Source of the DNA: Tissierellia bacterium
GTDB lineage: Bacteria > Bacillota > Clostridia > Tissierellales > Tissierellaceae
DNA: 33,287 bases
Direction: 5' to 3'
Assembly: GCA_012728125.1 (NCBI GenBank)
Contig: JAAYFT010000207.1
Location: forward strand, 1 to 33,287
Both the position numbers and the translations under genes were made by a program. Positions 14,660 through 32,085 of the stretch are shown here, piece after piece. How positions within the stretch are numbered: position 1 is the first letter of the stretch; each line of letters starts with the position of its first letter. A model generated the notes under the pieces. The model saw only the letters and a program-made list of their open reading frames with translations. It did not search any database and was not told the origin of the DNA.

Positions 14660-15274
14660 ATGTTGCAAATAGATGAAAGAATTGCAAGTATGGGGTATGA
14701 ATATATTGCTTGTATAGATGAGGTTGGAAGAGGTTGTTTGGCAGGTGATGTAGTTGCCTGTGCTATTATATTGCCTAAGAATCTATTTATAGACGGTGTA
14801 AAAGACTCAAAGAAATTAAGTGAAAAAAAACGGGAAGAATTATATGAAAAAATCATATCAAATTGCATCGCATGGGGTATAGGTAGAGTAAGTTCTACTG
14901 TCATAGATGAGATAAATATCAAAGAAAGCACTAAACTAGCTATGAAATTAGCTGTGCAAAATTTAGAGGATAGTAAGGGTAACAGGATAGTTCCAGACTT
15001 TTTATTAATAGATGCTGAGAAAATAGATTTAGATATTCAACAAGAATCTATAATTAAAGGTGATGAAAAATCATTTGGTATTGCCTGTGCTTCAATAGTT
15101 GCTAAAGTTTATAGGGATAGATTGTGTATTCAATGGGATAAGGAGTATCCTGGATATAATTTAAAGAAACACAAGGGTTATGGTACTAAGGAACATAGGG
15201 AACTAATAAAAAGCCTAGGTCCCTCTCCAATTCATAGAAGAACTTTTTTAAAAAATATATTAAATAGTAAATAA
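14660..15274 (+). CDS. rnhB: Ribonuclease HII
   Basis: RNase HII cuts RNA in RNA-DNA hybrids and removes single ribonucleotides from DNA. The 204-residue protein carries the catalytic D20-E21 in IDEVGRG, a further aspartate in LLIDAEKID, and SIVAKVYRDRL plus YPGYNLKKHKGYGTKEH near the C-terminus. The usual GRGPLAGPVV motif reads GRGCLAGDVV here, two prolines being replaced, though catalytic residues are kept. GAAGGTG precedes the ATG. Four bases separate its stop from the next gene. Confidence 0.96.
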   Translation: MLQIDERIASMGYEYIACIDEVGRGCLAGDVVACAIILPKNLFIDGVKDSKKLSEKKREELYEKIISNCIAWGIGRVSSTVIDEINIKESTKLAMKLAVQNLEDSKGNRIVPDFLLIDAEKIDLDIQQESIIKGDEKSFGIACASIVAKVYRDRLCIQWDKEYPGYNLKKHKGYGTKEHRELIKSLGPSPIHRRTFLKNILNSK

Positions 15275-15278
15275 GGGA

Positions 15279-16715
15279 ATGATCCAATTGAGAATCGAAT
15301 CCACCTTATTAAATAATTTGCTACAAAAGAATAAAATAGACTTTTTAAAAGAAGGCTCTATTTTCAAAGCTAAAATAGTTGATATTAAGGACAGTATAAT
15401 AATAATCAATATTCCTGAATTTGGATTACTGGAAGCTAGTCTTGATGTTAAAAGTGAATTGGAAATAGGAGAACGGATTTTGTTTTTAGTCAAATCAATA
15501 AACAATAACAAAGTGTTTTTAAAGCCTTTAGTTAATACTCCTATAAACCAAAAAATTGATACTATAGAAAATCCAATAGCTAGGATTTTGACCGAATTAG
15601 GTATAGAAACGAATCAAATAACCATAAGCTTAATAGAGAATTTAATGGCAAATAACCTACCAATAAATAAGGACATAGTAAATGATGGTATAAAAATATT
15701 GGAAAAGCTAATCAAACTATTAAATATTAAAGATGGAGAATATATAGCTTTGTCTGAACCCAATATAGTTAAACAGAATAGGTCTGTAGACATAGATACA
15801 GTAGATATTAGGCATTTATTACTTATGGATAAGAATTTAGATAATAATATAAAAACTAACTTGAGCCATATTTTTGATAATGATTTAATGGATGACTTAG
15901 AAAATAATGTAGATGTAGATATAGATGATAGAGGAATCAATGATTTAACCCATAGAGTAAAGGATTATGTTAGAAATCATATAGATTTAGATGATGATGA
16001 AAGTTTGATAAAGATTACAGGCTTTCTTGTAAAGAATAATATAAAACCAAGCCTTAGAAATATAAAATATATCAATAAATTAGATACAGATCCTATGGAT
16101 TTCTTTAAGGATTTTCAAGAGATAATCCATTTAGCAAGGAATAACAATAATCATAAAATAAATGGCTTGCCTAGTGAAAAAACTGAAGGTACAAATGGGT
16201 TAAAAATAATTTCAAATAAGGAAGAAGATTTGAGTGAGATAATAAAAATAATAGATGAGCTAGCCAAAGATGGAGACAAGAACTTAGAAAGAATAAAAGA
16301 TGTAGAAAGCAAAATCGATTTTTTAAGGGAATTAAACAAGGAATTGAACTTCATGTTTTTCCCTATAGACATTGGTCTTAATGATAGGTTAAAGGGCCTG
16401 ATGTCCTTTATAAAGGAAAGGAAAAAAAGGGGAAAAGGAGATAAATTAAATATTTTTATAAACTTAAGCACTGAAAACTTAGGAAATATAAGGGTTCTTT
16501 GTACTTTACTTGGAGATTCTTTAAGTATTAAGATGACTGTAGGGAAAAAAGATTTAGAATTTTTTAAATCTACTGAAGAAAAGTTGGTTGAAAAAATATT
16601 AACAATAGGTTATAGTTTAAAGGGAATTGATTATATTACAGATGAAAAGATTTCTATGATTGATTCTAATACATTAAAATCAAGCTCTTCATATATATTA
16701 GACTTGAAAGTGTGA
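15279..16715 (+). CDS. FliK-like (hook-length control-like) protein, YlqG position
   Basis: A 478-residue protein that looks like a divergent flagellar hook-length control (FliK-type) protein. The N-terminal part (about 20-85) reads like the beta-rich FliK-like domain of Clostridia (GSIFKAKIVDIKDSIIIINI, then an RILFLVKSINNNKVFLKPL block). The middle is Asp/Asn-rich and low-complexity. The C-terminal ~100 residues (INLSTENLGNIRVLCTLLGD and following) resemble the FliK C-terminal fold. It occupies the place of ylqG in Bacillus, between rnhB and ylqH. The start is uncertain: ATG 15279 lies too close to AAGGGA, and TTG at 15288 has better spacing. No signal peptide is seen. Function is inferred from resemblance and from the FlhB-C-like neighbour. 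Confidence 0.65.
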   Translation: MIQLRIESTLLNNLLQKNKIDFLKEGSIFKAKIVDIKDSIIIINIPEFGLLEASLDVKSELEIGERILFLVKSINNNKVFLKPLVNTPINQKIDTIENPIARILTELGIETNQITISLIENLMANNLPINKDIVNDGIKILEKLIKLLNIKDGEYIALSEPNIVKQNRSVDIDTVDIRHLLLMDKNLDNNIKTNLSHIFDNDLMDDLENNVDVDIDDRGINDLTHRVKDYVRNHIDLDDDESLIKITGFLVKNNIKPSLRNIKYINKLDTDPMDFFKDFQEIIHLARNNNNHKINGLPSEKTEGTNGLKIISNKEEDLSEIIKIIDELAKDGDKNLERIKDVESKIDFLRELNKELNFMFFPIDIGLNDRLKGLMSFIKERKKRGKGDKLNIFINLSTENLGNIRVLCTLLGDSLSIKMTVGKKDLEFFKSTEEKLVEKILTIGYSLKGIDYITDEKISMIDSNTLKSSSSYILDLKV

Positions 16716-16719
16716 TATT

Positions 16720-17019
16720 ATGAAAAAGAATAATAGTTTTGAAAATAATGATTTAAAAAAGGCAGTTGCTTTAAGGTACAAGCCTGGAGATAATGCTCCT
16801 ACAGTAGTTGCCAAGGGTAAAGGTTTTGTAGCTGAAAGAATAATTGAAAAAGCTATTGAAGAAGAAATATATATACACCAAGATGAAGAGCTTGTTAACA
16901 ATCTATTAAATTTGGAAATCAGAGAAGAAATCCCTGAGAAACTTTACGAAGTTTTAGCGGAGATTATTTTTTATGTTTATGATTTAGACAGGCAAAGGGG
17001 TAAAGAACATGGCCAATAA
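16720..17019 (+). CDS. ylqH: Stand-alone FlhB C-terminal domain protein (YlqH-like)
   Basis: This 99-residue soluble protein matches only the cytoplasmic C-terminal part of the type III export gate FlhB, the part that switches export specificity after self-cleavage. AVALRYKPGDNAPTVVAKGK corresponds to the segment just after the NPTH cleavage site, and EEIPEKLYEVLAEIIFYVYDL to the C-terminal helix. The NPTH motif itself is absent (a short NDLKKAVAL lead-in replaces it), so no self-cleavage is expected. There are no membrane segments. It begins 4 bases after the FliK-like gene and overlaps yraN by 11 bases. It is the counterpart of Bacillus ylqH; its cellular function is unknown. Confidence 0.88.
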   Translation: MKKNNSFENNDLKKAVALRYKPGDNAPTVVAKGKGFVAERIIEKAIEEEIYIHQDEELVNNLLNLEIREEIPEKLYEVLAEIIFYVYDLDRQRGKEHGQ

Positions 17020-29532: not shown

Positions 29533-30765
29533 ATGGATACAGCAAATACTAATGAAACTGAAAAGAGAGGACACAAATCAAGATTTATTATCATCTTGTT
29601 AATAGTTTTATTGTTGATACCCTTTGGAATCTTGGCTTTTCTATATAACAATAATCAAACATTTAAGAAAAATGCTAACGATATATTAACAAAAATGCCC
29701 GGTCCTGTAGGTAAGTATTTTGCCAATATTCCAACAGAAATGGAAAGGAATGAAAAAATCCAATATTTATCTAAATATTACTTAGAGTTAGATCCAAATT
29801 CTGCAGCAGAAAAAATCTATATAGTTAAGAAGGATGATGAAAAACTTTATATAGATCTAATAAAAAGCATGAATTCCATTTCAGTTACTAAAACCGAAGA
29901 AATAGTAAATAGGATTAGAAACATGGAATTAAGAAAAGACTTATTATTCTCAGTATATGAAGAAGTCCTTAAGGAAGAGGAGGAGAAACTTCTTTCAGAA
30001 GTATCTAGGTTTGAAAGTCAAGATATAATCCTATCTATAAGTGAAATCGAAAACAATTATAGTAATAGAGAATTTTTAAGAGTATTAGAAGAAGTAAATA
30101 TAAATACTCTGGGAGAAGTCCTGTACTACATAGATACTGATCTACGTGACTATATTTTAAGTAGTTTCAATCATAACAGAAGAAGCGATATTATTGGAAT
30201 TATTAATAAGAGATCTAATGAAGCCATAGAGTTGGAAGAGCTTGCAAAGGTATACGAAACTAAATCAGTGGAGCTTGCTATAGATCTATTAGGCAATACT
30301 GACTCCTATTCTATGGAAGAATTAGCTATTATATATAGCAATTTATCTATTTTAAAGTCTTCTAAAATATTATCAAATATAGAAGATGAGGGCTTTATAC
30401 AGGACTTATTTTCAAGTATTATCCGATACGAGGGTTTAATAAAATCCGAAGAAAATATAACTCAGAAAATCAGTAAAGGTATTGAGTTTTTCAAAGAATA
30501 CTATGAAAAAATTAATAACCTTGTCATGATCTATGACAAAATGACTCCTGAAAAAGTTGCAAAAATCGTTGAGAATATGGTGGGCAATACTAATGCTATA
30601 ACTGCCATTGAATTAGAAGCAGAAAACATACTGGAATTAACTGACAGGGATATTATTATAGATGTTCTATCAAAATTAAGAAAGCAAAACCAATCAAAGA
30701 TATTGGACCTATTAGAAACAGAAACTGCAACCCAGGTAACTAGGCTATTAGCAAGGCCAAATTAA
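29533..30765 (+). CDS. MotE/YlxF-like membrane protein with MgtE/FliG-like repeats
   Basis: A 410-residue protein at the position of ylxF (MotE family) between fliJ and fliK. It has a short cytoplasmic N-terminus, one membrane helix at about 18-38, and a long, mostly helical acidic part. Known MotE/YlxF proteins are about half this length, with a coiled coil and an MgtE N-terminal-like domain. Here several related helical units are seen: EELAKVYETKSVELA (about 235), EELAIIYSNLSILKS (262) and NNLVMIYDKMTPEKVAKIV (about 328), plus LGEVLYYIDTDLRDYIL, which resembles FliG middle/MgtE N modules. The C-terminus ends ETATQVTRLLARPN, as in YlxF. In other bacteria MotE helps MotC or stator function; that role is only inferred. 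The ATG follows AGGGGGAAAG. Confidence 0.7.
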   Translation: MDTANTNETEKRGHKSRFIIILLIVLLLIPFGILAFLYNNNQTFKKNANDILTKMPGPVGKYFANIPTEMERNEKIQYLSKYYLELDPNSAAEKIYIVKKDDEKLYIDLIKSMNSISVTKTEEIVNRIRNMELRKDLLFSVYEEVLKEEEEKLLSEVSRFESQDIILSISEIENNYSNREFLRVLEEVNINTLGEVLYYIDTDLRDYILSSFNHNRRSDIIGIINKRSNEAIELEELAKVYETKSVELAIDLLGNTDSYSMEELAIIYSNLSILKSSKILSNIEDEGFIQDLFSSIIRYEGLIKSEENITQKISKGIEFFKEYYEKINNLVMIYDKMTPEKVAKIVENMVGNTNAITAIELEAENILELTDRDIIIDVLSKLRKQNQSKILDLLETETATQVTRLLARPN

Positions 30766-30795: not shown

Positions 30796-32085
30796 ATGGA
30801 AGTCCTAGTACTAGATTTAGATTTTAATCCAAAACCTACAAAAAATCCTGTTAATAAAGATCTTAAGTCCAGTGAAAAAGACTTTTCATCAACGCTAAAG
30901 GCAGTTGAAGAAAGGAAGCAAAATAGACAAATCAAAATCTATGAAAATAAGGAAGAGTTAAAAGAAGCTTCTGCTAAGGATCTAACTCCAGTTGACGAAG
31001 AAGATGAAGTCAATAAAGAAAAGGTATTAGAGCAAGAAGAAGTAAAGACACCAATCATTTATGACAATATATTTAGAATAATAGATACAAGTGTTATAGA
31101 AGATGAAAGTTTAGTACCCTTAGAATTAGAAACAGCTCAGAAAATAGCTTCAGTTGAAAACCAAGGTTTTAACGAAGAAGATCCAATGAACATTCTCAAA
31201 GAAGAAGATTCAAAAATAGATATAGAGAAAAACCAAAGGATACTGAGGGAAGAAAACATAGAATTAGCAAATAATTTTATAGATATAGGGGAAAAAGAAA
31301 CTCCAGTGTCTAAATCTGAGAACTTACAATTAGATAGTAATATTCAGGCTACTTCAGTTAAATTTCAAGAAAAGGAAAATCCTTCAGTAGATGAGTTTGT
31401 TGATTCCAGTAATAATATAACAAATAACTATATACCTAGCGCCCAAAAAATGGGCAACAAACTTGATTCAGAAACACAAACCAAATCATACAATCCAGAA
31501 ATAGAGCTAGTTAATGAGGAAGGCTATGAACCATCAAATAAGGAAATAGATATAGAAGTAGATAGTCAAAATATATTTACCACAAACAAGGAGTTTATTG
31601 TTATAAAAGAAAATTCCTTAGAATTAGGAGAAACTGAAGTAGTTGATAAAAAGGACTTAATCCACCAGATTGTTGAAAAAGTAAAACTAGATTTCCAGAG
31701 CCCTAAAAATGAGATTAGGATTAAATTAAAGCCTGAAATACTTGGAGAAATGACCATGAAAATTGAAGTTGCAAAAGGAGCAATTACTGCTAAGATAATG
31801 GTTGAAAATCAAAAAACTAAGGAAATCATTGAAGGAAATATAATTCAACTGAAGGAGGAAATCAAAGATACTGGCCTTGAGATAAAAACCTTTGAAGTTT
31901 TTGTAGGTAAGGATGGAGATTTAGACAAGCACAGCTTTAATCATTTTAATTTCAATCAAAGTAACAGAAGAATAAGAATAAGGAGTTCAAATTCTAAGGC
32001 CAGTTTAAGCTACGATGATAAACTAACTGAAATTACCAATGAAGCTAGGCTCTACAAAGATGGAGGCTTAGATTTATTGGCTTAG
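30796..32085 (+). CDS. fliK: Flagellar hook-length control protein FliK
   Basis: FliK measures hook length and signals FlhB to switch export to filament proteins. The 429-residue protein has a long, acidic, low-complexity N-terminal ruler (about 1-285) and a C-terminal Flg_hook domain from about 290 with [20 protein letters not shown], followed by [17 protein letters not shown] and LGEM-type residues needed for the switch. The Asn/Ser/Arg-rich tail is variable. AAGGAGGTGAATTA precedes the ATG. The position between the MotE-like gene and flgD is standard. Confidence 0.93.

What the first reader, a model, noticed from the sequence alone, without database searches (positions are those of the whole stretch)
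15279..17019. FliK-like / FlhB-C-like gene pair outside the flagellar operon
Seen: a 478-aa protein with FliK-like N- and C-terminal regions is followed 4 bases later by a 99-aa protein equal to only the FlhB cytoplasmic C-domain, lacking the NPTH cleavage site and membrane part. True FliK is encoded separately at 30796. Known: FliK and FlhB-C interact to switch export specificity, and Bacillus has ylqG-ylqH in the same place. Inference: an ancient paralogous 'ruler and switch' pair kept among RNA/DNA maintenance genes, either tuning flagellar export or reused for another purpose.
Basis: partly seen in the sequence, partly recalled or inferred. Interest (0 to 1): 0.6.

Follow-up and report, generated by a model that had tools for sequence, protein, structure and literature searches.

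The report
Second FliK–FlhB-like switch gene pair
Next to the flagellar genes lies a conserved two-gene unit encoding a second FliK-like protein and a free-floating copy of the FlhB switch domain; it is found in many bacterial phyla almost only alongside flagella, so it is probably an overlooked accessory of the switch that tells bacteria to stop building the hook and start the filament.

Summary
The pair is real. window:16720-17019 (99 aa) is a stand-alone FlhB cleaved C-domain (FlhX/YlqH type): no membrane part, NPTH in 0/88 relatives versus 31/31 FlhBs, substrate-docking pocket kept. window:15279-16715 (478 aa, YlqG type) has a FliK-type T3S4 switch domain at its C-terminus; the top PDB fold hit is the PscP switch domain. 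Its N-terminus is not FliK-like but a predicted OB/S1-like barrel shared by FlhX partners across phyla. Its last five residues match the FliK tail: 31/31 YlqG, 28/30 FliK, 11/544 other ORFs; those residues are proposed to flip the switch in Salmonella (PMC13344023). In 133 of 145 FlhX loci from several phyla such an ORF lies directly upstream, even where the pair sits elsewhere, for example by flagellins. FlhX forms one clade apart from FlhB (100/97). Among 150 genomes of the order, YlqG tracks FlhX, and 54 of the 56 genomes lacking FlhB lack FlhX. Best reading: an ancient, untested flagellar switch accessory. FlhX and an flhX-fliK neighbourhood were already reported; the partner's distinct architecture, tail and near-universal pairing appear new.

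The parts
15279..16715 (+). YlqG-type FlhX partner (478 aa): predicted OB/S1-like barrel (residues ~28-83), helical middle, T3S4-type switch domain (~356-453), C-terminal tail LDLKV
15360..15527 (+). Region coding for the N-terminal barrel (residues ~28-83), not FliK-like, shared by FlhX partners of other phyla
   Evidence: strands E28-37, E40-45, E49-55, E66-75, E78-83
16344..16637 (+). Region coding for the T3S4/Flg_hook-type switch domain (residues ~356-453)
16698..16712 (+). C-terminal pentapeptide LDLKV, same pattern as the FliK C-terminus (window FliK ends LDLLA)
16720..17019 (+). FlhX (YlqH/flhB_rel type), stand-alone FlhB cleaved C-domain, 99 aa, no NPTH, no membrane part; pocket residues A26, P27, A80, I83 equal Salmonella A286, P287, A341, L344
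17009..17362 (+). yraN (UPF0102), start overlaps the end of flhX by 11 bases
14660..15274 (+). rnhB (ribonuclease HII), directly upstream
   Evidence: synteny
30796..32085 (+). True FliK of the flagellar operon, for comparison (not part of the pair)
   Evidence: PF02120, 61.4 bits

Best explanation
The two genes encode a dedicated accessory of the flagellar type III export switch. FlhX is a pre-cleaved, unanchored copy of the FlhB cleaved C-domain (FlhB_CCD) that keeps the substrate pocket. YlqG is a FliK-type switch domain with the FliK C-terminal tail, carried on a folded OB-like N-terminus in place of the secreted hook ruler. I propose that the YlqG switch domain and tail bind FlhX as FliK_C binds FlhB_CCD, and that the two work from the cytoplasm: FlhX can occupy the FlhB docking site when the original FlhB_CCD is missing or has been ejected, and YlqG holds, loads or strips it, so the pair sets or resets the early/late export state. 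Shown here: domains, tail, pocket, linkage, clade and co-occurrence with flagella. Inferred: binding, cytoplasmic location, and the reset or buffering role.
For: Adjacency in 133 of 145 FlhX loci with room upstream; six of the other twelve still have a FliK-like ORF with a different end. Adjacency kept when the pair is elsewhere in the genome. In the order, YlqG is found in all 58 FlhX+ genomes outside family f19, in 0 of 19 FlhB+ FlhX- genomes and in 0 of 54 genomes with neither; FlhX occurs in 75 of 94 FlhB+ genomes and 2 of 56 without FlhB (counted by hand). Those two, and three other genomes lacking an intact FlhB, have flagellar rod genes. Tail motif 31/31 YlqG, 28/30 FliK, 11/544 background. 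Pocket conserved: A286 77/88, P287 88/88, A341 83/88; this pocket docks early substrates (PMC9307174). FliK-dependent loss of FlhB_CCD flips the Salmonella switch, with the last five FliK residues proposed to act on it (PMC13344023). Precedent by title only: H. pylori HP1575 as a 'spare part' permitting export when FlhB_CC is deleted (Wand 2006, cited in PMC3040844). Genomic setting among flagellin, fliS, csrA and flgL in Thermodesulfobacteriota and as a second pair in clostridia.
Against: No experiment on YlqG was found in the held library. The chain model of the switch domain plus FlhX left tail and linker disordered (pLDDT below 50) and gave no supported contact. Nineteen FlhB+ genomes of the order lack FlhX and YlqG, so the pair is dispensable for having flagellar genes. 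Some FlhX copies have no FliK-like ORF upstream, three of them having rnhB there instead. One bacterial family (f55) has partners without the usual tail. Three Hydrogenothermaceae genomes show FlhX without FlhB. Fold hits for the window protein alone are weak (best E 0.022).
Confidence: 0.6

Rival explanations
1. Cytoplasmic decoy or buffer: FlhX, with its intact pocket, binds early substrates or the FliK tail in the cytosol and YlqG competes for it, so the pair sets the threshold of the switch without ever docking at the export gate.
For: Pocket and fold kept without membrane anchor; YlqG tail matches FliK, so both would compete for the same surfaces.
Against: The H. pylori precedent (title only) points to substitution at the gate rather than sequestration. 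Nothing here separates the two.
Confidence: 0.2
2. Co-option for a non-flagellar role (nucleic acid or ribosome related), given the OB-like domain and the rnhB/yraN/rbgA neighbours.
For: Predicted OB/S1-like barrel; neighbours; three Hydrogenothermaceae genomes with FlhX but no FlhB, one of them also without FliF and rod hits.
Against: Almost complete absence of FlhX from genomes without FlhB; pair sits among flagellar genes in other phyla; pocket and tail of the flagellar switch are kept.
Confidence: 0.08
3. Vestigial or nearly neutral remnant of a past flagellar duplication, held in place by operon structure.
For: Lost in several flagellated genera; YlqG is frameshifted in G043 and G140.
Against: Conserved pocket, tail and adjacency across many phyla, and retention of the pair at different genomic sites.
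Confidence: 0.07
4. YlqG is simply a second, exported FliK ruler for a particular growth stage or filament type, with FlhX as its gate partner.
For: Same switch domain and tail as FliK; second pairs and DUF6240 proteins lie beside flagellins.
Against: N-terminus unrelated to FliK and predicted folded, with no FliK-like disordered ruler half.
Confidence: 0.05

Closest known systems
FlhX / YlqH / H. pylori HP1575 (TIGR00789 flhB_rel)
   Same: Stand-alone FlhB cleaved C-domain without membrane part; the window protein covers the whole TIGR00789 model (E 2.3e-26) and groups with other FlhX. FlhX is already tallied as a flagellar component in surveys (PMC10746217, PMC9321776).
   Different: Score 91.8 is below the NCBIfam cut-off 117.35. 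The almost constant FliK-like partner is not described in the passages read, apart from 'flhX-fliK' in Nitratiruptor.
FliK (PF02120 Flg_hook), including the window's own FliK at 30796
   Same: T3S4-type C-terminal domain and C-terminal pentapeptide
   Different: N-terminal half unrelated (E 0.6), predicted OB-like barrel; lower PF02120 scores; encoded with FlhX, not in the flgB-fliK operon
B. subtilis ylqG-ylqH
   Same: Same gene slot as recalled from general knowledge (rbgA/ylqF, rnhB, ylqG, ylqH)
   Different: Not compared directly here; no functional study found. A ylqG P457Q change appears in evolved swarm isolates (PMC11523185), without a tested effect.
Injectisome SctP/SctU pair (PscP-PscU, YscP-YscU)
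   Same: Folds of both partners (PscP SS domain 5cuk; PscU/FlhB C-domains)
   Different: There SctU is the full membrane protein and SctP a secreted ruler; here both are extra copies beside an intact FlhB and FliK

Membership tests
FlhB (flagellar export switch protein) | N-terminal membrane domain | tested here: not met
   99 aa; only PF01312 261-335 matched
FlhB (flagellar export switch protein) | NPTH autocleavage site | tested here: not met
   NDLK in the window; NPTH in 0 of 88 FlhX, 31 of 31 FlhB
FlhB (flagellar export switch protein) | C-domain fold and substrate pocket A286/P287/A341/L344 | tested here: met
   A, P, A, I at the equivalent places; fold hits 3b1s, 3b0z
FlhX / flhB_rel (stand-alone FlhB C-domain) | Separate clade from FlhB | tested here: met
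   One side of a branch, 99/98 and 100/97
FlhX / flhB_rel (stand-alone FlhB C-domain) | TIGR00789 curated score | tested here: not met
   91.8 bits against 117.35, though the model is covered 2-82 of 84
FlhX / flhB_rel (stand-alone FlhB C-domain) | Can replace the FlhB cleaved domain (HP1575 precedent) | not testable with these tools
   Needs genetics; Wand 2006 known here only by title
FliK | Flg_hook domain over the Pfam cut-off | tested here: inconclusive
   Window protein 18.1 < 29.8 bits; orthologues in the same slot up to 38.1
FliK | T3S4 fold | tested here: met
   Top PDB hit 5cuk PscP SS domain, prob 1.00 (E 0.022; E 0.017, rmsd 2.1)
FliK | FliK-type N-terminal ruler half | tested here: not met
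   hhalign E 0.6 against FliK N-termini; barrel predicted
FliK | C-terminal switch pentapeptide | tested here: met
   LDLKV; 31/31 orthologues, 28/30 FliK
FliK | Secreted through the flagellar export gate | not testable with these tools
   Needs a secretion assay

The most novel reading that the evidence does not exclude
The pair is a resetting device for the 'irreversible' export switch: FlhX re-caps FlhB after FliK has ejected the original cleaved domain, and YlqG, a non-secreted FliK-like protein, loads or strips FlhX, letting cells return a finished or damaged basal body to early export.
Probability: 0.2. Interest if true: 0.8.

Novelty: new variant of a known kind. Interest (0 to 1): 0.52.

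Why it matters
How FliK and FlhB flip the export switch has been an open question for decades; a 2026 study argues that FliK ejects the FlhB cleaved domain irreversibly. Many flagellated bacteria, apparently including B. subtilis though (from general knowledge) not Salmonella or E. coli, encode a spare cleaved domain next to a second FliK-type switch protein. If it acts on the gate, the switch is buffered or reversible in much of the bacterial world, and the Salmonella picture is a reduced case. This can be tested in ordinary laboratory strains.

Tried and rejected
Sequence search of PDB with the YlqG profile: only helical designs and a weak bS1 match, uninformative. NCBIfam for YlqG: nothing. 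A read-through chain joining the YlqG C-domain and FlhX (stop codons read as Q, window stop as TGAT=Q; a modelling device, not a claim of readthrough): domains well predicted, but tail and linker below pLDDT 50 and pTM 0.56, so no interface claim. First genome-contig scan with a broad FlhX alignment failed for lack of conserved stretches; repeated with nine closer sequences. Weak PF01312 hits in G003 and G149 lie outside the C-domain and below the cut-off and were discarded. 'FlhX without flagella' was examined: G064, G114, G471, G172 and the planctomycete G556 all have flagellar rod proteins, so incomplete assembly is likelier; G552 (Sulfurihydrogenibium) has none of the tested families and stays unexplained. 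A nucleic-acid role from the neighbours was considered and rejected because of the flagellar distribution.

Full report
What is there. The window is G000:C137 of a 2.05 Mb flagellated genome in 233 contigs. Genes run in one direction: trmD, rplS, an rbgA/ylqF-type GTPase, rnhB, the 478-aa gene (ylqG type), the 99-aa gene (flhX), yraN, comM, dprA, topA, codY, then flgBC-fliE-fliF-fliG-fliH-fliI-fliJ, a 410-aa gene, fliK and flgD (ylqF, flgB and a few others named from order and size). The ylqG stop and the flhX start are 4 bases apart and flhX overlaps yraN by 11 bases.

FlhX. The 99-aa protein matches PF01312 only at 261-335 and covers TIGR00789. A full FlhB and FlhA lie on another contig. Of 88 FlhX sequences none has NPTH; all 31 FlhBs do. 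The pocket A286/P287/A341/L344 is A/P/A/I here and conserved in 77, 88, 83 and about 78 of 88; in Salmonella that pocket docks early substrates, and isoleucine at 344 works like wild type (PMC9307174). In trees FlhX from Bacillota, Thermodesulfobacteriota, Nitrospirota, Aquificota, Campylobacterota, Magnetococcales and others is one side of a branch against FlhB C-domains, mostly of the same genomes (100/97; 99/98 with FlhBs of the order alone). Only about 88 columns were available and the bootstraps had not fully settled.

The partner. PF02120 gives 18 bits for the window protein (below cut-off) but up to 38 bits for proteins in the same slot. Profile-profile of C-domains against true FliK: E 1.1e-5 (order), 1.4e-7 (other phyla), 9.9e-9 (first thirty named loci, mostly Lachnospiraceae); an RNase HII control gives 0.58. 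The model (mean pLDDT 72) shows an N-terminal barrel, a helical middle and a C-terminal alpha/beta domain; the best PDB match is the PscP specificity-switch domain, followed by weaker matches that include ribosomal S1-type and other OB-type entries. The family ends in a pentapeptide, hydrophobic-[DN]-hydrophobic-x-[AVI], present in 31/31 orthologues, 28/30 true FliKs (30/30 relaxed) and 11/544 other long ORFs. The 2026 Salmonella study proposes that the last five residues of FliK act on FlhB_CCD to eject it (PMC13344023).

Linkage. In the order, 31 orthologues were aligned from the same slot. In family f19, and in second copies in two genomes, flhX is elsewhere, yet a long protein whose C-domain matches YlqG (E 8.3e-7, 1.6e-7) ends overlapping it. 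Across the phylum 27 FlhX loci have a long upstream ORF, all but a few with the tail. In 80 named loci found by FlhX similarity alone, nearly all have it. Overall 133 of 145 loci with room have a tail-bearing ORF directly upstream, 115 of them overlapping or within 30 bases; six of the twelve exceptions have a FliK-like ORF with a different end (judged by eye), three have rnhB there. In Thermodesulfobacteriota the pair lies between flgL-csrA and flagellin-fliD (L174) or after fliS (L175) (names from sequence inspection).

Distribution. In 150 genomes of the order: 94 with FlhB, of which 75 have FlhX; 56 without FlhB, of which 2 have FlhX. YlqG occurs in exactly the 58 FlhX+ genomes outside f19 and in none of the 19 FlhB+ FlhX- genomes (counted by hand; a second match was taken as FlhX where the listing was cut, and two genomes matching only through the ~800-aa family were not counted as YlqG). 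Phylum-wide 328 of 399 genomes match the FlhX/FlhB profile, mostly with two matches. Of 18 genomes behind named loci 16 have both. In Hydrogenothermaceae most have both, a few have one or neither, and one genome has both genes decaying.

Mechanism. Shown: a free FlhB_CCD-like protein with an intact pocket; a partner with FliK switch domain and tail but another N-terminus; tight linkage; co-occurrence with flagella. Inferred: the partner binds FlhX, stays in the cytoplasm, and the pair sets or resets the early/late state by supplying, holding or removing a replacement cleaved domain. The H. pylori homologue HP1575 was reported, by title, to act as a spare part for FlhB_CC. The direct in-silico attempt at an interface was inconclusive.

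Novelty. FlhX is known and the flhX-fliK neighbourhood has been mentioned. No functional study of the partner was found in the held library, which lacks most subscription papers. New here as far as found: the partner is a distinct family (barrel, T3S4, tail), its near-universal pairing across phyla, and the match of its tail to the FliK switch residues.

Noticed in passing
L213:2718-5102 (G051), also G016:C9, G028:C4 and others: A third family of about 800-aa proteins (DUF6240 plus a Flg_hook-like domain, ending VDTRI) lies directly upstream of flagellin and a FliS-like gene, with no FlhX beside it.
   Followed up: partly
L047:1971-4234 and L071:1974-4291: Two relatives carry a second flhX with its own upstream FliK-like gene, just before a FliS-like gene and flagellin.
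   Followed up: partly
L075, L093, L096, L097 (mostly phylum family f55): FlhX partners here have the T3S4-like region but lack the conserved C-terminal pentapeptide.
   Followed up: no
G552, G572, G593, G578 (Hydrogenothermaceae): Three genomes have FlhX but no FlhB match; in G578 FlhB is broken by stops and only an FlhX fragment remains, which may be a snapshot of flagellar loss.
   Followed up: partly
L038 (G043) and G140:C7: ylqG is split by frameshifts in two genomes that otherwise have flagellar genes; sequencing error or real decay not resolved.
   Followed up: no
window 29533-30762: 410-aa gene between fliJ and fliK with weak MgtE_N and FliG_M matches at its C-terminus.
   Followed up: no
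B. subtilis ylqG (PMC11523185): A ylqG P457Q change is shared by several evolved clones of one swarm-evolution population; effect not tested.
   Followed up: no
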